Shown: positions 2,185 to 62,848 of the stretch, piece after piece
How the letters are laid out: every line of letters begins with the position of its first letter
Numbering within the stretch: position 1 is the stretch's first letter
Origin: Mucilaginibacter gotjawali
GTDB taxonomy: Bacteria; Bacteroidota; Bacteroidia; Sphingobacteriales; Sphingobacteriaceae
Length of the DNA: 64,000 nt
NCBI RefSeq assembly: GCF_002355435.1
Contig: NZ_AP017313.1
Location: 868,001 to 932,000 of the forward strand
Direction: 5' to 3'
Program-made: the position numbers and the translations under genes
The notes under the pieces: model-generated
What the model saw: the letters and a program-made list of their open reading frames with translations, nothing else
What the model was told of the DNA's origin: nothing
Database searches by the model: none

Positions 2185-5100
2185 TTAGAATGAAAGTTTT
2201 ATGTTCAGGCCATAACTGCGAACCGACGGCGACTGTAAGCCTGTGCCTCCTGCCGAAGAGTTTGCGTATTGATCCAGGTCAACGTCTTTAAATTCCGGAT
2301 TTTTGTAGAAGTACAATAAGTTGCGACCGTAAATGGTAAGCGAAGCCTTAGTGATAAAGGTGTTCTGCAACCAACGTTTCGGTAAATCGTAATCCAAAGT
2401 TACTTCCCTTAGTTTAGCATAGGTTTTGCTCATCAGGTTGGCTTCAGTTACACCATAATATTCGCTGGCAAATTCCTGTACAAAAACCGGCGTGGTATTA
2501 GTGCCATATTGCAATGCGCTATAATTTAATACTTTACCGGTATGTGAATCATAGTTTGGCGCTACACCGTTAGATATAACTACCCCCGGGGCAACGTAGC
2601 TGCCGGTATAGTTTGGATTGGGAGTGATATTGTTTAGCGGGAAATTTTTCCAGTCCTGGTAGCGTGCCGCACCTAATGCACCTTCGGCGGTTAAGGCATT
2701 TGCACCACCGCGCATTGTTTTATTGTGCATATAATCTGAAATAACGCCACCCACAGCACCATCAAACTGGAAGCCCAGGCTTACGCTTTTGTAATGAAAT
2801 TTGTTATAGAATGACCAGTTAAAATCAGGTGTGGCATGTCCCAGGTTTTGAGCTACCGGGTTTACCAATGCTTCACCGTTTGAGCCAAAGATAATTTGTC
2901 CTGTTGGCGTTCTAACAAACGCTGAACCGTAAACAGCGTCAGTTCTGTCACCCTGGTGGAAGAAGGTGTTATAGGTTGACTGTCCCGGAGGCAACTGATC
3001 AAATATTTGCTTGTAAGTAGAGAAGTTGGCCAAAACATCCCAGCCAAAACCGCCAAGATCCTTTATTGGAGTACCTGTTACGCTCAATTCATAACCGGTT
3101 GTTTTGGTTTTCAAAGCGTTAATATATTCGATTGTATATCCGGATGCGGTTGAAATTGCGTTGGCCAATATTTGTGGACCGTCAATGTACTGGAAGGCTG
3201 TACCACTTAGTCCTAAACGGTTTTGCAAAAATTTGATGTCGAAACCTTCTTCGTAGTTAACACGCGTTGAAGTTTTGATACCGTTAGCATACAAATTGTC
3301 GGGGCCGTAACCTGCCGTTTGGCTGTTATAAGGCTTAGCCGTTGAATAGGAAGTATTTAAGGCATAAGTTGGGCCATTGTAAGGGGAGTTATAGGTACTG
3401 CCGTAGCCCAATGGGTTGTCAAATAACGATGGGCCTGTACTGCCACCAAATGCGGTGATTGAACTATATGGAGCAGGGCCAATGGTTGGGCTGGTGGCAT
3501 CACTGCGGATATTGGCATAGGAGGCCCTGGCTTTGAGGAAGGTGATGAAATCAGGCATTTTAATATAATCCGAGATCACGGTAGCAAGTGATAAACTTGG
3601 ATATAAATAAGTTGTAGGTTGCTGAAATGCCGATGAGTATTCATTACGGATAGTACCTGATAAAGTAGCATATTTGCCGAAAGAAGCATCTAATGAAGCG
3701 AATTCGCTTAACTGCAGTTGCGCTGAATTAAAACTGGTGGCCTGCAGGGCATTTTCTGAGTTGCTGAATGAGTAAACACCCGGTACATTCAGGTAGTTGG
3801 TAGATACCCAGCTGGAGTTGTATTTAAAGCTGCGCAGATTGCTGCCCACCAAACCTGATAAGTTAAGGAATTTTGCTACGGTATAATTGTAGTTTAATGT
3901 TAACAGGGTATTGTTGTCAAACAGGTCGCGGCGATCCTCACGGTAATCACCCATGTTGCCTTCACGTCCGTAAGGGTGTGCCGAATATGGCATATCTTCC
4001 GTCCGTAACAGGTTATAGGTACTGATCTGTGATTTTAATGCAACATTCAGGTTATCATTCAATTTATAAGTACCACCCAGGTAACCGTAAACATCGTTTT
4101 TGTGATGACCGCGGGTCCAGATCTTTGTCAGGAAATAAGGGTTATGGTAACGGGTATATTCTTCAAATTCCGAAGCTACACCAACTTTACCCGGCTGCCA
4201 GATGGCTTTAATGTCAGGCGAGTTAACGCTCCAGTCAGCGCCTGTCCAAATCGCCATGTTGTAAATGATAGAGTTAGGGCCGTATTGAACATCCGGAAAA
4301 TCATCTGTGCTCTGGCGGTTAAAGTCAAGGCTTGCTTCAAATTTTAAGCGGGAAGACGCATTAAAGGAAGCATAAACGTTTGCGTTGGCAATATCAAGGT
4401 ACTGCGAAGGAATGTAACTTTGCTGATGTTCCTGCGAAGCTGAAAACCTGATGTTGTAATTATCGCCATTGGCAGTTATCGCAACATCATTATTGGTTTG
4501 ATAACCTGTTTGTAAAAAATTGGCCAGGTTATTTGCACCGAGGGCTGTCCACGGCGTACCCTGGCGAACGCCGTTGACAACTGGGCTGTCATATTGCGGG
4601 ATCAACTGACCATTAAAATATGGCCCCCAGATATCGTAATCACTATCTACGCCGCCGGGTGCGCCGCCTTTACCGTCAACAAATTCATAAAAAGTGTTTT
4701 CGCCCGGGCCGAAGGAATGCTGTACCCGCGGAAATGCGATGAACCCTTTATTTAACACGGTGCTGCTGTTGATATCAACAGTAATACCTTTTTTGTTTTT
4801 ATCGCCTTTTTTGGTGGTGATAATGATGGCGCCAAACTGCGCGCGGCTGCCGTAAAGCGCTGCTGCCGCAGGTCCTTTTAATACGGTATACGTTTCGATG
4901 TCATCAGGGCTGATATCATAAGTATCAGAGTTGAACGGTAATCCGTCAATAATGAACAATGAAACGGTATTACCGCGAATAGTTACGTTTGGTACGCCTA
5001 AAATTTCTGAAGTGGCGCCTACCTGCAAACCGGCAACTTTACCGATCAACCCGTTAATTGGGTTGGGGTCGCGGGCCGTGGTCAGATCGTCGCCATTAAC

Positions 5101-5484
5101 TGATTGGGTTGCGTAACCGATGCGCCTGGTTTCTTTTTTAACACCCAGCGCGGTTACTACTACTTCATTCAACCCTTTGGCACTAACCTTAAGGGTAACA
5201 TCAATAGTTGTCTGATCGGCAACTTGTACACTTAGTTCTTCGTAGCCGATAAAACTAAATTTTAATGTTTGCCCTTTATTAACAGCAATTGAATACCGGC
5301 CGTTAACATCGGTAATGCTGCCTGTTTTAGTACCAGCTACCCTTATGTTTACGCCGGGCAATGGCTGATGTGTGTCATCAGTAACTGTTCCTGAAATTTT
5401 GGTTTGCGCCATTAGTGCGTATGGCGCAACACAGAATAACAATACCGTTACTACGGTTTTGATTGTTTGGTAAATCTGTTTCAT
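2185..5484 (-). CDS. SusC/RagA family TonB-linked outer-membrane transporter
   Basis: At 1099 residues this has the usual SusC length. After a signal peptide ending near APYALMAQ come a carboxypeptidase-regulatory-like domain (about residues 28-105; SGTVTDDTHQPLPGVNIRV), a plug domain (about 110-230; LNEVVVTALG, TVLKGPAAAALYGSRAQFGA, IIITTKKG) and a long beta barrel ending in an aromatic residue (NIKLSF). The start and order match SusC/RagA proteins, which import glycans, peptides or other oligomers using TonB energy together with a SusD lid. It is the first gene of the SusCD pair. The PhnZ-like gene lies 278 bases upstream on the same strand and could be co-transcribed. No anti-sigma or hybrid two-component regulator is adjacent, which would be the usual sign of a polysaccharide locus. 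Confidence 0.95.
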   Translation of the reverse strand: MKQIYQTIKTVVTVLLFCVAPYALMAQTKISGTVTDDTHQPLPGVNIRVAGTKTGSITDVNGRYSIAVNKGQTLKFSFIGYEELSVQVADQTTIDVTLKVSAKGLNEVVVTALGVKKETRRIGYATQSVNGDDLTTARDPNPINGLIGKVAGLQVGATSEILGVPNVTIRGNTVSLFIIDGLPFNSDTYDISPDDIETYTVLKGPAAAALYGSRAQFGAIIITTKKGDKNKKGITVDINSSTVLNKGFIAFPRVQHSFGPGENTFYEFVDGKGGAPGGVDSDYDIWGPYFNGQLIPQYDSPVVNGVRQGTPWTALGANNLANFLQTGYQTNNDVAITANGDNYNIRFSASQEHQQSYIPSQYLDIANANVYASFNASSRLKFEASLDFNRQSTDDFPDVQYGPNSIIYNMAIWTGADWSVNSPDIKAIWQPGKVGVASEFEEYTRYHNPYFLTKIWTRGHHKNDVYGYLGGTYKLNDNLNVALKSQISTYNLLRTEDMPYSAHPYGREGNMGDYREDRRDLFDNNTLLTLNYNYTVAKFLNLSGLVGSNLRSFKYNSSWVSTNYLNVPGVYSFSNSENALQATSFNSAQLQLSEFASLDASFGKYATLSGTIRNEYSSAFQQPTTYLYPSLSLATVISDYIKMPDFITFLKARASYANIRSDATSPTIGPAPYSSITAFGGSTGPSLFDNPLGYGSTYNSPYNGPTYALNTSYSTAKPYNSQTAGYGPDNLYANGIKTSTRVNYEEGFDIKFLQNRLGLSGTAFQYIDGPQILANAISTASGYTIEYINALKTKTTGYELSVTGTPIKDLGGFGWDVLANFSTYKQIFDQLPPGQSTYNTFFHQGDRTDAVYGSAFVRTPTGQIIFGSNGEALVNPVAQNLGHATPDFNWSFYNKFHYKSVSLGFQFDGAVGGVISDYMHNKTMRGGANALTAEGALGAARYQDWKNFPLNNITPNPNYTGSYVAPGVVISNGVAPNYDSHTGKVLNYSALQYGTNTTPVFVQEFASEYYGVTEANLMSKTYAKLREVTLDYDLPKRWLQNTFITKASLTIYGRNLLYFYKNPEFKDVDLDQYANSSAGGTGLQSPSVRSYGLNIKLSF

Positions 5485-5762
5485 CTGTTAAAGTTTAATA
5501 GTGAAGGAAGTTGATTTTTCATTCAGCAATACTAAACTTTGTTTATTATTGATAAACAAACTCAGGATTAAGCTATATTTAAGATTAGATTTTGATAAGG
5601 TTAAGCGTTGGCTTTATTTATAACGGGAATATTACATATAACTCACACGGAGTTAATATTATATTAAAATAATATGCTTATAATTTGGGTAGATATCCGC
5701 TTAAAACCTGCTAATGCTTATCAATACCAGCGTAAAGCCCGTTTTTGCGGTAAAAAGTGCTG

Positions 5763-6353
5763 CTATACCTTGTTGGCAGCCCGGTTGGTTAAATGGTCAA
5801 GCGCAAGCATTTTAAGGTGCCCGATATTGTTAACCGCTACATCTGTTTCTTTTGCCATATCATCCCAGTAACGCAAACGGATGATCAGGTCAAGATCTGG
5901 CTTTTGTTCAAATGCTGCTGCTTCTTCCGGGCTCATCATCCCTCCCTGGAATTCCAGTGTTACTTTACTGGCGGGCGAAAGTTTGTTATAATATTCGGCA
6001 TATCTGTAAGTAAGGTAACGCTTGGCAATAACATGTGCCTGCACCAATTCGGCTATCCGTTCTGAAAAGCCATGTGCTAAAAGGTAATCAGCACCCAATT
6101 TTTCATGATCCATATTACCCATTCCGTCCATGCTTTCAGTTTGTCCCGCTCCGGCGCATAAATGGCCAATGTCGTGAAAAAATGCCGCCAGGATCACTTC
6201 ATCGTCGTACCCTTCTTCTTCAGCAAGCCGGGCCGCCTGCGACATATGTTCCAGTTGCGAAACCGGCTCCCCGATGTAATCTTCATCACCATGCTTTTCA
6301 TAAAGAGAAAAAACTTCGTTAACAACAGCTTCAGGGTTGATGGTTGGGCTCAT
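5763..6353 (-). CDS. phnZ: PhnZ-like HD-domain mixed-valent diiron oxygenase (2-amino-1-hydroxyethylphosphonate dioxygenase type)
   Basis: PhnZ cleaves the C-P bond of 2-amino-1-hydroxyethylphosphonate to glycine and phosphate. This 196-residue protein has the family length and signature: Tyr26 and Glu29 in YIGEPVSQLEH, then His36, His60-Asp61 and His64 in FFHDIGHL, His83, His107, Lys111, Ser129, Gln136, Arg161 and Asp164. With a shift of two or three residues these line up with the metal ligands and substrate contacts I recall for characterised PhnZ (Y24, E27, H34, H58, D59, H62, H80, H104, K108, S126, Q133, R158, D161). I chose the ATG at 6353; an in-frame TTG six codons upstream is less likely. 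It is divergent from the XRE-cupin regulator. The usual partner PhnY, a 2-oxoglutarate hydroxylase, is not in the window. Confidence 0.85.
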   Translation of the reverse strand: MSPTINPEAVVNEVFSLYEKHGDEDYIGEPVSQLEHMSQAARLAEEEGYDDEVILAAFFHDIGHLCAGAGQTESMDGMGNMDHEKLGADYLLAHGFSERIAELVQAHVIAKRYLTYRYAEYYNKLSPASKVTLEFQGGMMSPEEAAAFEQKPDLDLIIRLRYWDDMAKETDVAVNNIGHLKMLALDHLTNRAANKV

Positions 6354-54652: not shown

Positions 54653-55774
54653 ATGAGTGAAGAGAATTTCATAGCTGAAGACGAAATCGAAAAGGAAGAT
54701 ATTGGCGCCAACCTATTAATGGAAAAACCATTTGATCCGAAGAAAATCGATATTAAACAGAAAACATTGTCAATTGACTTAATTGTGAAGAGACTGGCCG
54801 CTAAGCCGCCAGAAATTGATCTTTATCCAGATTTTCAGCGAAAGGATGATTTATGGGATCCCGCCAAGCAAAGCCGACTGATCGAATCCATTTTAATAAG
54901 TTTTCCGCTGCCAGCATTTTATTTCGACGGGACTAACGACAATAAATGGCTAGTTGTCGACGGCCTACAAAGATTGAGTTCTTTTCGAAATTTCATGGTC
55001 ACTAAGTCTTTAAGATTGGTAGGGCTAGAGTTTTTACACAATTTAAAAAATAAATCATTTGATGAGTTACCTAGAACGTTGCAAAGACAAATTGAAGAAA
55101 CTCAAATTGTAGCATATATCATAAATCCGGGAACTCCTGAAGAGGTGAAATTTAATATTTTTCAAAGAGTAAACACAGGTGGGTTGTTAATGGAACCTCA
55201 AGAAATTCGTCACGCACTTAATCAAGGCATCCCGGCAAAGTTTGTTGCAGAACTTGCATCAAGTCCGGAATTTATAAGTGCAACTTCCGGAAAAATCAAA
55301 TCTGATAGAATGCTTGACAGAGAATTTGTCACTAGATTTGTGAGTTTTTACATAAAACCTATTTCCGAATATAAACCCGATTTGGATACATATATGAGCC
55401 AAAAAATGGGAGAATTAAAGACGCTCAGCTCTGATCAAAGGACTGATGTGAAATCCAACTTCGTCAAAAGCATGAAATTAGCCAAGGAAATATTTTCTCA
55501 TTGGGCTTTTCGAAAAGTGTTTAATAAAAATGAAAGGCTTAAACCAATAAATAAAGCACTTTTCGAAGTATGGAGTGTTGAACTAGCTAAGCTTTCGGAT
55601 GAGCAACGCAAAATAATAAAGATACGAAGAGATACAATATTTGACAATTTTGTGAAGCTAATGAACAGTGATGAAACGTTCGTTGCAGCGGTTACTGCAA
55701 GCACAGGAGATAAAACCAAGGTTTTATACCGTTATACTACAATTGAAAATTTGATAAAAGAAACTTTAAAATAA
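54653..55774 (+). CDS. DUF262 (GmrS/ParB-Srx-like) domain protein
   Basis: This 373-residue protein has the DUF262 core at about residues 38-190: PDFQRKDDLWDPAKQSRLIE and ISFPLPAFYF, then the nucleotide-binding DGxQR motif at 103-107 (VVDGLQRLSSF), and FNIFQRVNTGGLLMEPQEIR. In GmrSD, SspE and BREX-linked proteins this domain hydrolyses NTPs and controls a nuclease. The HNH/DUF1524 nuclease usual after it is absent here. The C-terminal half (about 200-373) is helical and not recognised. It is the first gene of a three-gene cassette; the ATPase starts at its stop (TAATG overlap). The region has visibly lower GC than its neighbours. Confidence 0.9.
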   Translation: MSEENFIAEDEIEKEDIGANLLMEKPFDPKKIDIKQKTLSIDLIVKRLAAKPPEIDLYPDFQRKDDLWDPAKQSRLIESILISFPLPAFYFDGTNDNKWLVVDGLQRLSSFRNFMVTKSLRLVGLEFLHNLKNKSFDELPRTLQRQIEETQIVAYIINPGTPEEVKFNIFQRVNTGGLLMEPQEIRHALNQGIPAKFVAELASSPEFISATSGKIKSDRMLDREFVTRFVSFYIKPISEYKPDLDTYMSQKMGELKTLSSDQRTDVKSNFVKSMKLAKEIFSHWAFRKVFNKNERLKPINKALFEVWSVELAKLSDEQRKIIKIRRDTIFDNFVKLMNSDETFVAAVTASTGDKTKVLYRYTTIENLIKETLK

Positions 55775-56871
55775 TGATTTCAAAAATTGAAATAAGAAAT
55801 TTCAAATCTTTAAAAAAGATAAGGTTCGATGCTAGGCAGTTATGTATATTGATGGGGTTGAATGGAATGGGCAAATCTTCGCTTATTCAAACTATATTGC
55901 TGCTTAGGCAAAGCAGGGACATATATAGAGGAAATCTTAGTTTAAACGATTATTTAACTGAAATCGGTAAAGGCAAAGATGCGATGTACCAATATAGTGT
56001 CAATGAAACAATTGAATTCGACTTCGAATTTACAGAACAAGAACCATTAAAATGGGCTTTTAAATATAATCCTGAAAGCAATTATCTGCAAAGTGATCAA
56101 AATTATGATTTTAATATTCTAAATACCTATTCGTTATTCAATGCCAACTTTCAATATCTACGGGCAGAGCGCATAGGGCCTCAGACTGACTATCAAACAT
56201 CATATTCGGAAGTGATAAATGATAGACAGATTGGATCAGACGGAAGACTTGCAGTACATTATTTAAATACTTTCGGGAACGAAAAAGTTAGCGACAAGTC
56301 CTTACATCATCCGAAAGCAAAATCGAGTGTATTAATTCATCAAGTTGATGCGTGGTTAGGTGAGATAACACCTGGCGTGAAACTTAATACAACTGAAATT
56401 CCCGGTACAGATAAGGTCTTGTTAGATTTTCAATTCGAAGCGGGATCTTTATATACAAGCCGTTTTAGACCAAAGAATGTCGGTTTTGGATTGTCATATG
56501 TTCTTCCTGTGATTGTGGCTTTACTATCCACGAAACAAGATAAACTTCTTATAATCGAGAACCCAGAATCTCACATTCATCCAAGAGGGCAGTCTGAATT
56601 AGGAAAACTAATTGCGTTGTCCGCGCAATCAGGTACCCAGTGCATAATTGAAACACATAGCGACCATATTTTAAATGGAATCCGTGTTGCAATAAAAGAG
56701 AAACTAGTCGAGAAGAGTAACGTAGGTATCTCCTATTTCGAAAGAATTACAGAAAATGAAGAACAATTTACAAAAATGATTTCTATTAAGGTAGACGAAA
56801 ATGGAGAGTTAAGTGACTATCCTAAAAACTTCTTAGACGAATGGAGTAATCAATTATTGAAACTTATTTAA
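55774..56871 (+). CDS. AAA ATPase with C-terminal DUF3696 (ABC/SMC-like)
   Basis: This 365-residue ATPase of the AAA_15/21 class begins ISKIEIRNFKSLKKIRF, with Walker A G28-LNGMGKSS at 28-36. The central region (about 45-230) has no classical coiled coil. PKNVGFGLSYVLPVIVALLS is the ABC signature-like segment, LLIIENPESHIHPRGQSEL is Walker B with catalytic Glu, and CIIETHSDHILNG is the switch His. The C-terminal ELSDYPKNFLDEWSNQLLKL is the DUF3696 tail. Such ATPases serve as sensor or motor subunits in defence systems such as Septu, PARIS and related loci. It overlaps the DUF262 stop by one base and lies 7 bases before the third gene. Confidence 0.92.
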   Translation: MISKIEIRNFKSLKKIRFDARQLCILMGLNGMGKSSLIQTILLLRQSRDIYRGNLSLNDYLTEIGKGKDAMYQYSVNETIEFDFEFTEQEPLKWAFKYNPESNYLQSDQNYDFNILNTYSLFNANFQYLRAERIGPQTDYQTSYSEVINDRQIGSDGRLAVHYLNTFGNEKVSDKSLHHPKAKSSVLIHQVDAWLGEITPGVKLNTTEIPGTDKVLLDFQFEAGSLYTSRFRPKNVGFGLSYVLPVIVALLSTKQDKLLIIENPESHIHPRGQSELGKLIALSAQSGTQCIIETHSDHILNGIRVAIKEKLVEKSNVGISYFERITENEEQFTKMISIKVDENGELSDYPKNFLDEWSNQLLKLI

Positions 56872-56878
56872 TTACTCT

Positions 56879-57736
56879 ATGCAACTAATTTGTAATGAAT
56901 TATCATTTCTCCCGTTGGCGGAAAACGAAAGTATTGCCGAGGAAAGATTTTATCAATTGATTAAGACATTCAAAAAAGCAAAAGAGAGATATGGATTCAA
57001 TCATATTCGCTTTCCGCTAAATCACCATGACCAACAAGTTACTTTAAAGCGAAACTTTTATGAAGTGGTTTCAAATTTCAGTAATCAAACATATAAGAAC
57101 CTCATCGTCGATCTTTGTAAGTCCCCATTCATAGACGACTTAGAAGACGATGAATTAAACATGTTCTATTCAAGTAAATACGAAATTATCGATGAGGATG
57201 TTCCGACGAAAGCATCCCCATTGGGCTTGCCGGTAGCGTTTATTAAATCGTCACCGGCTGTAAGCTTAAACTCCCATCCATTTTGGAGAAAAAAGAAGAT
57301 ATCAATATTAAAGTCCAGTGAAAATGAAATCGAAAATGCTATTTTGATTGTTTATAACATCTGTTTAGAAACGGACGTTGATGCCAAAGAGCTTTCCGAA
57401 TGGGCGGATAACTTTTTACCGAGTGAGTTAACTACGGAAGAAGAAATAAAAAAATATTTAAACTACACAAAGTATTCCATTGTATTTTCCCCGGAATTTT
57501 TGGTGCAATTTTTCGAATGGAAAACTAACGACACCGATAAATACAAGTACTTATTGCAGTTATTAAAGGATGTTGAGGTACATCCTTTTACAGGGGGCAT
57601 GGGACAAACAGAAAACTTAAAGTATAGGGGCAAAGAAGCCTCAAAAAGGGTGACTCAGGCAGATCGACTCAGTTATACATTGGATAATAATTTAGTAACA
57701 TTTTTGGCGTGCAAAGGACATTATAAATTTCATTAA
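56879..57736 (+). CDS. Unrecognised protein with C-terminal YoeB/RelE-like mRNA-interferase domain
   Basis: This 285-residue protein belongs to no full-length family I know. Residues 1-198 are unassigned (ERFYQLIKTFKKAKERYGFN, NLIVDLCKSPFIDDLEDDEL). Residues 199-285 align with E. coli YoeB from its residue 3 to its last, with offset 198 and only compensating one-residue gaps: Trp214/W16, Lys230-Asp231/K32-D33, Pro236-Phe237/P38-F39, Glu245/E46, Lys248/K49, Arg263/R65, Cys278/C80, His281/H83, Tyr282/Y84. E46, R65, H83 and Y84 are the catalytic residues. No YefM-like antitoxin gene is beside it; the N-terminus or the ATPase may restrain the toxin. The fold match is from recalled sequence, not a search. 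Confidence 0.8.
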   Translation: MQLICNELSFLPLAENESIAEERFYQLIKTFKKAKERYGFNHIRFPLNHHDQQVTLKRNFYEVVSNFSNQTYKNLIVDLCKSPFIDDLEDDELNMFYSSKYEIIDEDVPTKASPLGLPVAFIKSSPAVSLNSHPFWRKKKISILKSSENEIENAILIVYNICLETDVDAKELSEWADNFLPSELTTEEEIKKYLNYTKYSIVFSPEFLVQFFEWKTNDTDKYKYLLQLLKDVEVHPFTGGMGQTENLKYRGKEASKRVTQADRLSYTLDNNLVTFLACKGHYKFH

Positions 57737-61474: not shown

Positions 61475-62848
61475 ATGATGGGCAGGAATGAGCTTTCAGA
61501 ACGATTGGTGATAGCCAACGAAGAAAAAGCAAGACTGGAAGCAGAGCTTATCCTTGCGAATATTGAACTGGATTTTCAGAACGAAGAAAAGAAAAAGCGC
61601 GCTGCTGAACTTAACCTGGCGAATATTGAGCTGGAATTTCAAAACAGGGAGAAACTTAACCGCGCCAGGGAACTCATCATTGCTAACAGGGAACTTGATT
61701 TTCAGAACGAAGAAAAAGGCAAACGTGCCGCTGAATTGATCATCGCCGGCAAGGAACTGCTTTTTCAAAATGAGGAAAAGGAAAAACGTGCAGCGGAGTT
61801 ACTGTTAGCTAATACCGAACTGGTTTTCCAGAATGCAGAAAAAGAAAAACGGGCGGCCGAACTGATCATCGCCAACAAGGAGCTGCTTTATCAAAATGGT
61901 GAAAAGGAAAAGCGCGCGGCGGAACTGATCATCGCCAACCTGGAGTTGATTTTTCAAAATGAAGAAAAAGAAAAACGGGCAAATGAGCTGATCATTGCCA
62001 ATAAAGAATTGACTTACCAAAACGGCGAAAAAGAGAAACGGGCGGCCGAATTGATTATTGCGCTGAAAGAGTTGGGTTACCAGGATGAAGAAAAAGCAAA
62101 ACGCGCTGCTGAACTGATTATTGCTAACCGTGAGCTGTTGATCCAACAGCAGGAAAAAACAAGACGGGCGGCTGCAGAGGCAAAGAAAGATGAATTCTTT
62201 AATATGGTTAGTCATGAATTCAAGACACCATTGACCAATATAAAAGCCATAAACCAGCTGCTTGAAAAAACAACTGACCGGGCCAATAAACATTATCCAT
62301 TTATTTTAAATGCCGGCCATAGCATTAAACGGCTTGAAAAACTAATTGCGGACCTGCTGGATGTAACCAAGATCAACTCAGGCCAGATAGACCTGAATAT
62401 CGCGGCGTTTTATTTCCCGGATGCACTCACCAACAGTATAGCCAATATCCAGCTTACGGCAAACAACCATGAGATTATGCTGGAAAATTCGGCAGATATC
62501 CTGTACGCCGGCGACCAGTTCAGAATTGAACAGGTACTGATTAACCTGTTAACTAATGCCATCAAATATTCTCCTGAGGCCGGCAAGGTATTGGTAAAAG
62601 CTAAAATTGAATCGGGCGACCTGGTGGTGACCGTGCAGGATTTTGGTATTGGGATTGCAAAACACGAGATCGATCAATTATTTCAGCGTTTTTACAGGGT
62701 AAGTGAAACGGCTATGCTTTTCCAGGGCGTCGGCTTGGGTCTGTTTATTGCGTCCGAAATTGTCAAAAAACATAATGGCAGGTTTACTATTACCAGTGAG
62801 CCGGGCGAAGGCAGCAGTTTTAGTTTTACACTGCCATTGCCCGCCTGA
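61475..62848 (+). CDS. Sensor histidine kinase with ten 21-residue coiled-coil repeats
   Basis: This 457-residue kinase has no membrane helix. Residues 21-230 are ten tandem 21-residue units of the form RAAELIIANKEL-x-x-QNEEKEK; three heptads per unit imply a long parallel coiled coil. HisKA follows with His247 (FFNMVSHEFKTPLTNIKAIN), then HATPase_c (VLINLLTNAIKYS, DFGIGIAKHEIDQLF, GVGLGLFIASEIV). The repeat type is known in Bacteroidota kinases and phosphatases. The input is unknown; the coil may transmit or measure a partner's signal. Two adjacent ATGs (61475, 61478) follow AAGAGG, an unusually good ribosome-binding site for this group. No response regulator is adjacent. Confidence 0.92.
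   Translation: MMGRNELSERLVIANEEKARLEAELILANIELDFQNEEKKKRAAELNLANIELEFQNREKLNRARELIIANRELDFQNEEKGKRAAELIIAGKELLFQNEEKEKRAAELLLANTELVFQNAEKEKRAAELIIANKELLYQNGEKEKRAAELIIANLELIFQNEEKEKRANELIIANKELTYQNGEKEKRAAELIIALKELGYQDEEKAKRAAELIIANRELLIQQQEKTRRAAAEAKKDEFFNMVSHEFKTPLTNIKAINQLLEKTTDRANKHYPFILNAGHSIKRLEKLIADLLDVTKINSGQIDLNIAAFYFPDALTNSIANIQLTANNHEIMLENSADILYAGDQFRIEQVLINLLTNAIKYSPEAGKVLVKAKIESGDLVVTVQDFGIGIAKHEIDQLFQRFYRVSETAMLFQGVGLGLFIASEIVKKHNGRFTITSEPGEGSSFSFTLPLPA
61535..62164 (+). repeat. Ten in-frame 63-bp tandem repeats encoding the coiled coil
   Basis: The units encode RAAELIIANKELxxQNEEKEK with small variations (last residues NGEKEK, NREKLN, DEEKAK). At the DNA level neighbouring units differ at synonymous sites, so the protein pattern has been kept by selection instead of by recent slippage. 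Confidence 0.88.

What the first reader, a model, noticed from the sequence alone, without database searches (positions are those of the whole stretch)
57470..57736. YoeB-like catalytic domain fused to the end of an unrelated 198-residue N-terminus
Residues 199-285 match E. coli YoeB over its full length with near-constant offset: W16, K32-D33, P38-F39, E46, K49, R65, C80, H83 and Y84 all have identical partners. Spacing R-to-H (18 residues) is the same in both. YoeB toxins are normally stand-alone 84-residue proteins paired with YefM. A C-terminal fusion with no YefM-like neighbour is unusual, and the N-terminus may be a built-in inhibitor or target-recognition domain.
Basis: partly seen in the sequence, partly recalled or inferred. 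Interest (0 to 1): 0.85.

Follow-up and report, generated by a model that had tools for sequence, protein, structure and literature searches.

The report
Menshen defence effector carrying YoeB toxin
The gene is the third gene of a known bacterial anti-phage defence operon (Menshen, also published as ptuXYZ), and its last 85 residues are a YoeB-type mRNA-cutting toxin that probably stops protein synthesis in infected cells; the reading is sound, but this kind of fusion has already been published.

Summary
Residues 203-282 of the ORF at 56879-57736 are a YoeB domain: Pfam YoeB_toxin E=1.5e-11, above the curated cut-off. The predicted fold matches E. coli YoeB at Z 13.2 and 1.6 Å, and the residues at Glu46, Arg59, Arg65, His83 and Tyr84 are all kept. 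The 'unrelated' N-terminus is the conserved NsnC domain. The ORF is nsnC, last gene of an nsnA-nsnB-nsnC (Menshen) operon at 54653-57736 (PADLOC E=1.2e-133, 4.9e-115, 6.3e-33). I found 15 more NsnC-YoeB fusions in Bacteroidota and Chlorobiota. Other NsnC proteins carry unrelated C-termini on the same N-domain, so the N-domain is a system-wide adaptor, not a YoeB-specific inhibitor. Gerdes (2025, PMC11980606) published this gene trio as 'ptuXYZ', with a C-terminal YoeB-related domain. Likely mechanism: NsnA and NsnB sense infection or tampering with DNA modification and unleash NsnC, which cleaves mRNA in the ribosomal A site and arrests the cell. Six relatives lie in type I restriction-modification operons and two beside a cytosine methyltransferase, which hints at a guard role. 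No function was tested. New member of a known kind; low to moderate interest.

The parts
54653..55774 (+). nsnA (published also as ptuX): DUF262/GmrSD_N (ParB/Srx-type NTPase) protein, 373 aa
   Evidence: PADLOC NsnA E=1.2e-133; Pfam GmrSD_N E=2.7e-21
55774..56871 (+). nsnB (ptuY): AAA_15/AAA_21 P-loop ATPase with C-terminal DUF3696, 365 aa; its start overlaps the nsnA stop
   Evidence: PADLOC NsnB E=4.9e-115; Pfam AAA_15 3.8e-23, DUF3696 3.4e-12; Walker A GLNGMGKSS seen directly in the sequence
56879..57736 (+). nsnC (ptuZ): two-domain effector, 285 aa, starting 7 bases after nsnB
   Evidence: PADLOC NsnC E=6.3e-33; 15 homologues with the same architecture
56879..57460 (+). NsnC N-terminal domain (residues 1-194), shared by NsnC proteins with unrelated C-termini; no Pfam family and no confident known fold
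57473..57733 (+). C-terminal YoeB domain (residues 199-285): E245, R257, R263, H281, Y282 correspond to Glu46, Arg59, Arg65, His83, Tyr84
   Evidence: Pfam E=1.5e-11; fold match Z 13.2 to E. coli YoeB; residue table; catalytic roles from PMC3814384

Best explanation
The locus is a Menshen (nsnABC, also called ptuXYZ) anti-phage operon whose effector gene nsnC ends in a YoeB-type ribonuclease. Shown by sequence and prediction: the operon, the YoeB fold, the conserved catalytic residues, and the swapping of C-terminal domains on one conserved NsnC N-domain. Inferred: NsnA (DUF262, ParB/Srx-type NTPase) and NsnB (P-loop ATPase) sense infection or tampering with DNA modification. They control NsnC through its N-domain, keeping the YoeB domain inactive in a healthy cell. 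On triggering, the YoeB domain enters the ribosomal A site and cleaves mRNA, with Glu245 as general base and His281 as general acid. Translation stops and the phage cannot spread.
For: PADLOC assigns all three genes in order. The YoeB domain passes the Pfam cut-off, has the fold and the catalytic residues described for the YoeB-ribosome complex (PMC3814384). NsnA and NsnB precede NsnC in all 17 neighbourhoods first examined (NsnA lost with the contig end in L040, shortened in L048), with no antitoxin gene paired to nsnC. The N-domain is conserved while the C-termini fall into six unrelated clusters, the pattern of a fixed adaptor with interchangeable effectors. Six YoeB-type relatives sit in type I restriction operons (one with only an hsdR remnant), two beside a C5-cytosine methyltransferase and one beside DUF499/DUF1156 genes. 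Phage resistance of Menshen is lost when the DUF262 gene is mutated (review PMC10952713 citing Millman 2022).
Against: No function was measured for this locus. The NCBI Txe/YoeB equivalog cut-off is not reached (39.5 against 51.8 bits), so the domain has diverged. The residue equivalent to Glu63, which stacks on the third A-site base, is Ala261, and seven relatives carry a four-residue insert in that loop, so codon preference or even ribosome dependence could differ. One relative, L048, has Lys at the Glu46 position and a shortened NsnA. A YoeB from Agrobacterium also cuts DNA (PMC7878887), so the substrate is not certain. How the toxin is silenced is unknown.
Confidence: 0.62

Rival explanations
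1. A guard of DNA modification: nsnABC is mainly a back-up device for restriction-modification systems, comparable in logic to PrrC inside the EcoprrI operon. It fires when the modification or restriction enzyme is blocked or lost, and the window copy is an orphan that left its partner.
For: hsdS-nsnABC-hsdR order in L036, L037, L041, L046 and L047, an hsdR remnant after nsnC in L043, methyltransferase-nsnABC in L042 and L045, DUF499/DUF1156 around L048. NsnA carries a domain known from modification-dependent enzymes. The comparison with PrrC is from my own knowledge.
Against: The window, L038, L039, L044, L049, L050 and L051 show no such neighbour in the DNA held. Defence genes cluster anyway, and type I operons are common landing sites for cargo.
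Confidence: 0.22
2. The YoeB domain is a stand-alone addiction toxin that happens to be fused, with the N-domain acting as a built-in antitoxin.
For: No YefM gene nearby; YefM-YoeB and RHH-YoeB single-gene fusions exist (PMC11980606).
Against: The N-domain is shared with NsnC proteins that end in unrelated domains, matches no Pfam family, antitoxin families included, and is found next to NsnA and NsnB.
Confidence: 0.08
3. The C-terminal domain is catalytically altered and serves another purpose, such as DNA nicking or ribosome sensing.
For: Glu63 position lost and the loop enlarged in some relatives; Lys49 position variable; one YoeB cleaves DNA too (PMC7878887).
Against: The catalytic Arg65, His83 and Tyr84 equivalents are invariant and Glu46 and Arg59 nearly so across diverged relatives.
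Confidence: 0.08

Closest known systems
ptuXYZ (Gerdes 2025, mBio, PMC11980606), third protein PtuZ
   Same: Same three genes in the same order: DUF262 protein, PtuA-like P-loop ATPase, and a two-domain protein whose C-terminus is a YoeB-related BECR-fold domain; 17 operons are shown there, and the PtuZ modelled is from Flavobacterium.
   Different: Gerdes calls the N-domain PIN-like, from a superposition over 25 atom pairs; my search with the N-domain model showed no PIN protein among the 50 best matches. The paper never uses the name Menshen. I could not compare sequences with its table.
Menshen (NsnA, NsnB, NsnC; Millman 2022; domain polymorphism study Li 2025, gkaf357)
   Same: NsnA and NsnB match over nearly their whole length and NsnC over its N-domain.
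   Different: The YoeB part of this protein lies outside the matching PADLOC NsnC models (their matches end at residue 217 or before), and the C-terminal 89 residues alone match no PADLOC model. Li 2025 was not in the library, so whether YoeB is listed there could not be checked.
YefM-YoeB toxin-antitoxin module
   Same: Fold and catalytic residues of the toxin domain.
   Different: No YefM antitoxin; fused behind an NsnC domain; part of a three-gene defence operon. The same genome carries ordinary YoeB toxins with antitoxin genes elsewhere.
Cami1, the CRISPR-activated RelE effector (PDB 8phj, 8phb)
   Same: A RelE-superfamily toxin domain attached to a sensory or regulatory domain in an immune system and acting on the ribosome (PDB titles; function from my own knowledge).
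   Different: Activated by cyclic tetra-adenylate through a CARF domain (own knowledge); weak Foldseek match; no NsnA or NsnB.

Membership tests
Menshen (NsnABC) | NsnA: DUF262 protein matching the NsnA model | tested here: met
   E=1.2e-133, residues 10-372
Menshen (NsnABC) | NsnB: P-loop ATPase matching the NsnB model | tested here: met
   E=4.9e-115 over the full length
Menshen (NsnABC) | NsnC model match | tested here: met
   E=6.3e-33, but only residues 1-185; the C-terminus differs from the models
Menshen (NsnABC) | Three adjacent genes, same strand, order A-B-C | tested here: met
   54653-57736, overlapping or 7 bases apart
Menshen (NsnABC) | Protection against phages | not testable with these tools
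   needs plaque assays
YoeB toxin domain (PF06769) | Pfam profile above gathering score | tested here: met
   44.6 bits against 27
YoeB toxin domain (PF06769) | YoeB fold | tested here: met
   Z 13.2, rmsd 1.6 A over 83 residues to 2a6q, on a predicted model
YoeB toxin domain (PF06769) | Catalytic Glu46, Arg59, Arg65, His83, Tyr84 | tested here: met
   E245, R257, R263, H281, Y282; roles from PMC3814384
Txe/YoeB addiction module toxin (TIGR02116 equivalog) | Score above equivalog cut-off | tested here: not met
   39.5 (whole protein) or 41.0 (domain) against 51.8 bits
Txe/YoeB addiction module toxin (TIGR02116 equivalog) | Cognate YefM/Phd-type antitoxin gene adjacent | tested here: not met
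   tblastn with three antitoxins of YoeB pairs of the genus and inspection of small ORFs
YoeB activity | Ribosome-dependent mRNA cleavage | not testable with these tools
   needs biochemistry
ptuXYZ (Gerdes 2025) | DUF262 protein, PtuA-like ATPase, two-domain protein with C-terminal YoeB-like domain | tested here: met
   description in PMC11980606; sequences of that paper not compared
ptuXYZ (Gerdes 2025) | N-domain resembles a VapC PIN fold | tested here: inconclusive
   AlphaFold2 N-domain model (pLDDT 86.9): no Foldseek match with E<=0.001, best VIA Z 4.4 to a non-PIN protein

The most novel reading that the evidence does not exclude
Menshen with a YoeB effector acts as a translational kill switch that guards DNA modification: nsnABC, often embedded between hsdS and hsdR or behind a cytosine methyltransferase, detects that the host's restriction-modification system has been disabled and then cleaves ribosome-bound mRNA.
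Probability: 0.2. Interest if true: 0.6.

Novelty: new member of a known kind. Interest (0 to 1): 0.3.

Why it matters
It shows that an mRNA-cutting toxin best known from toxin-antitoxin pairs has been recruited as one of several exchangeable killing domains in an anti-phage system. It also indicates that two published names, ptuXYZ and Menshen, describe the same gene trio. The placement of relatives inside restriction-modification operons gives a testable idea about what triggers Menshen; I found no established trigger in the papers I could read.

Tried and rejected
Chance resemblance: rejected by Pfam, PDB sequence and fold matches. Stand-alone toxin with a nearby antitoxin: rejected. Relatives in viral contigs: two scans found none; phage records gave no match to the N-domain; the plasmid matches shown were ordinary YoeB toxins. 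Two independent gains of YoeB by NsnC: the L048 domain groups with stand-alone toxins in the tree, but a single origin is not rejected (p-AU 0.36), so I do not claim it. Known fold for the N-domain: nothing convincing in PDB or viral models, no Pfam family, no PDB sequence relative; the published PIN-like assignment is neither confirmed nor excluded. Promoter and terminator scan: no more hits than shuffled sequence. Li 2025 on Menshen domain polymorphism is not in the library.

Full report
What was checked. The ORF 56879-57736 (+) encodes 285 residues. Its residues 203-282 match the whole Pfam YoeB_toxin profile (E=1.5e-11, 44.6 bits, cut-off 27) and solved YoeB proteins. They miss the stricter NCBI Txe/YoeB equivalog cut-off (39.5 against 51.8 bits), so the domain is a diverged YoeB. 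An AlphaFold2 model built on 15 homologues (mean pLDDT 85.5) matches E. coli YoeB 2a6q with Z 13.2, 1.6 A over 83 residues.

Catalytic residues. In the YoeB-ribosome structure Glu46 is the general base, His83 the general acid, Arg65 stabilises the transition state and Tyr84 orients the mRNA; Arg59 is also required (PMC3814384). The equivalents here are E245, H281, R263, Y282 and R257. Across 15 fusions R263, C278, H281 and Y282 never vary; E245 and R257 vary in one sequence each (L048 and L040); K248 is kept in 11 of 15. Two differences from plain YoeB stand out. The Glu63 position, which stacks on the third A-site base, is Ala261, and seven relatives have a four-residue insert in this loop. 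Codon preference may therefore differ (inference).

What the protein is. The gene is the third of an operon: nsnA 54653-55774 (DUF262; PADLOC NsnA E=1.2e-133), nsnB 55774-56871 (P-loop ATPase; NsnB E=4.9e-115) and nsnC (NsnC E=6.3e-33 over residues 1-185). This is the Menshen anti-phage system. The matches to NsnC models end before or in the first part of the YoeB domain, and the C-terminal 89 residues alone match no PADLOC model.

Relatives. A scan of 84,980 species' genomes gave 14 more NsnC-YoeB proteins, in Bacteroidota and one Chlorobiota record; a phylum survey added L055. In the neighbourhoods examined, NsnA and NsnB lie directly upstream; exceptions are L040, where the contig ends within nsnB, and L048, whose NsnA is shortened. 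No antitoxin gene is paired with nsnC; L045 has an ordinary YoeB-antitoxin pair 0.5 kb away on the other strand. The system is rare: 9 of 301 genomes of the family and 4 of 395 of the phylum carry an NsnC detected by the models used. The genus is most likely Mucilaginibacter, because the same-genus genome G019 has the same contig as the Mucilaginibacter galii record (L042).

Modularity. Among 27 NsnC proteins the N-terminal 175 residues form one sequence cluster plus one outlier, L035, which a profile still finds at E=9e-8. The C-termini form six clusters: YoeB (16), a second family ending in a 'QTTG...ET..IA.IL' motif (6), and four others. A profile of YoeB-type C-termini finds none of the other C-termini (all E above 1). 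The fixed N-domain is therefore best read as the part that NsnA and NsnB recognise, and the C-terminus as the exchangeable killing domain (inference). This argues against a YoeB-specific inhibitor. The N-domain has no Pfam family and no convincing fold relative.

Genomic context. Five YoeB-type operons are inserted between hsdS and hsdR of a type I restriction system (L036, L037, L041, L046, L047; two extra small genes lie between hsdS and nsnA in L047). L043 has a remnant of hsdR directly behind nsnC. L042 and L045 follow a C5-cytosine methyltransferase, and L045 has a vsr gene after it. L048 lies between DUF499 and DUF1156 genes. The window copy has no such neighbour. This suggests a link between the trigger and DNA modification, but defence genes cluster in any case.

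Mechanism. Shown: operon, fold (predicted), catalytic residues, domain swapping. From the literature: Menshen protects against phages and needs its DUF262 gene (PMC10952713, citing Millman 2022); YoeB cleaves mRNA in the ribosomal A site (PMC3814384). Inferred: NsnA and NsnB hold NsnC inactive and release or activate it during infection; the YoeB domain then stops translation. Confidence about 0.6 for the whole chain, and higher (about 0.8) for the single claim that the C-domain is an active ribonuclease.

Comparison with what is known. Gerdes (2025, PMC11980606) described 17 operons named ptuXYZ: a DUF262 protein, a PtuA-like ATPase, and PtuZ, with an N-terminal domain called PIN-like and a C-terminal YoeB-related domain. 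That is the same architecture as this locus. The paper does not mention Menshen; the identity of the two is inferred here from the PADLOC matches and the description, not from a direct sequence comparison. A dedicated paper on Menshen domain polymorphism (Li 2025, gkaf357) is cited by others but was not available, so I cannot say whether it already lists YoeB.

Verdict. The surprise is smaller than thought: the fusion is a member of a published defence family.

Noticed in passing
L036, L037, L041, L043, L046, L047; L042, L045: nsnABC inserted in type I restriction-modification operons (between hsdS and hsdR; only a remnant of hsdR in L043) or directly behind a C5-cytosine methyltransferase, once with vsr.
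   Followed up: partly
L010, L027, L050, L051, L056, L057 (C-termini): A second recurrent NsnC C-terminal family with a 'QTTG...ET..IA.IL..Y' ending and no convincing Pfam match in the one scanned (L050); possibly another toxin domain.
   Followed up: no
L030-L033, L034, L035, L053 (C-termini): Further unrelated NsnC C-termini, one group ending in 'IGYIGKHL.T'; function unknown.
   Followed up: no
L048:3309-3848 and 5001-5858: In this Saprospiraceae locus NsnA is only 179 residues long and the NsnC YoeB domain has Lys at the Glu46 position; the locus may be decayed or a variant.
   Followed up: no
L042:2190-3863 and L045:2197-3873: NsnA carries an N-terminal extension of about 185 residues in the two operons that start with a cytosine methyltransferase.
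   Followed up: no
G000:C1:212974-213243 and five further places in the window's genome (L002-L007): The genome also has other YoeB-like toxin genes, with adjacent small antitoxin-like genes, which could in principle cross-react with the fused domain.
   Followed up: partly
window 61475-62848: Sensor histidine kinase-like ORF with a long N-terminal run of near-identical coiled-coil repeats ('EKEKRAAELIIANKELLFQN').
   Followed up: no
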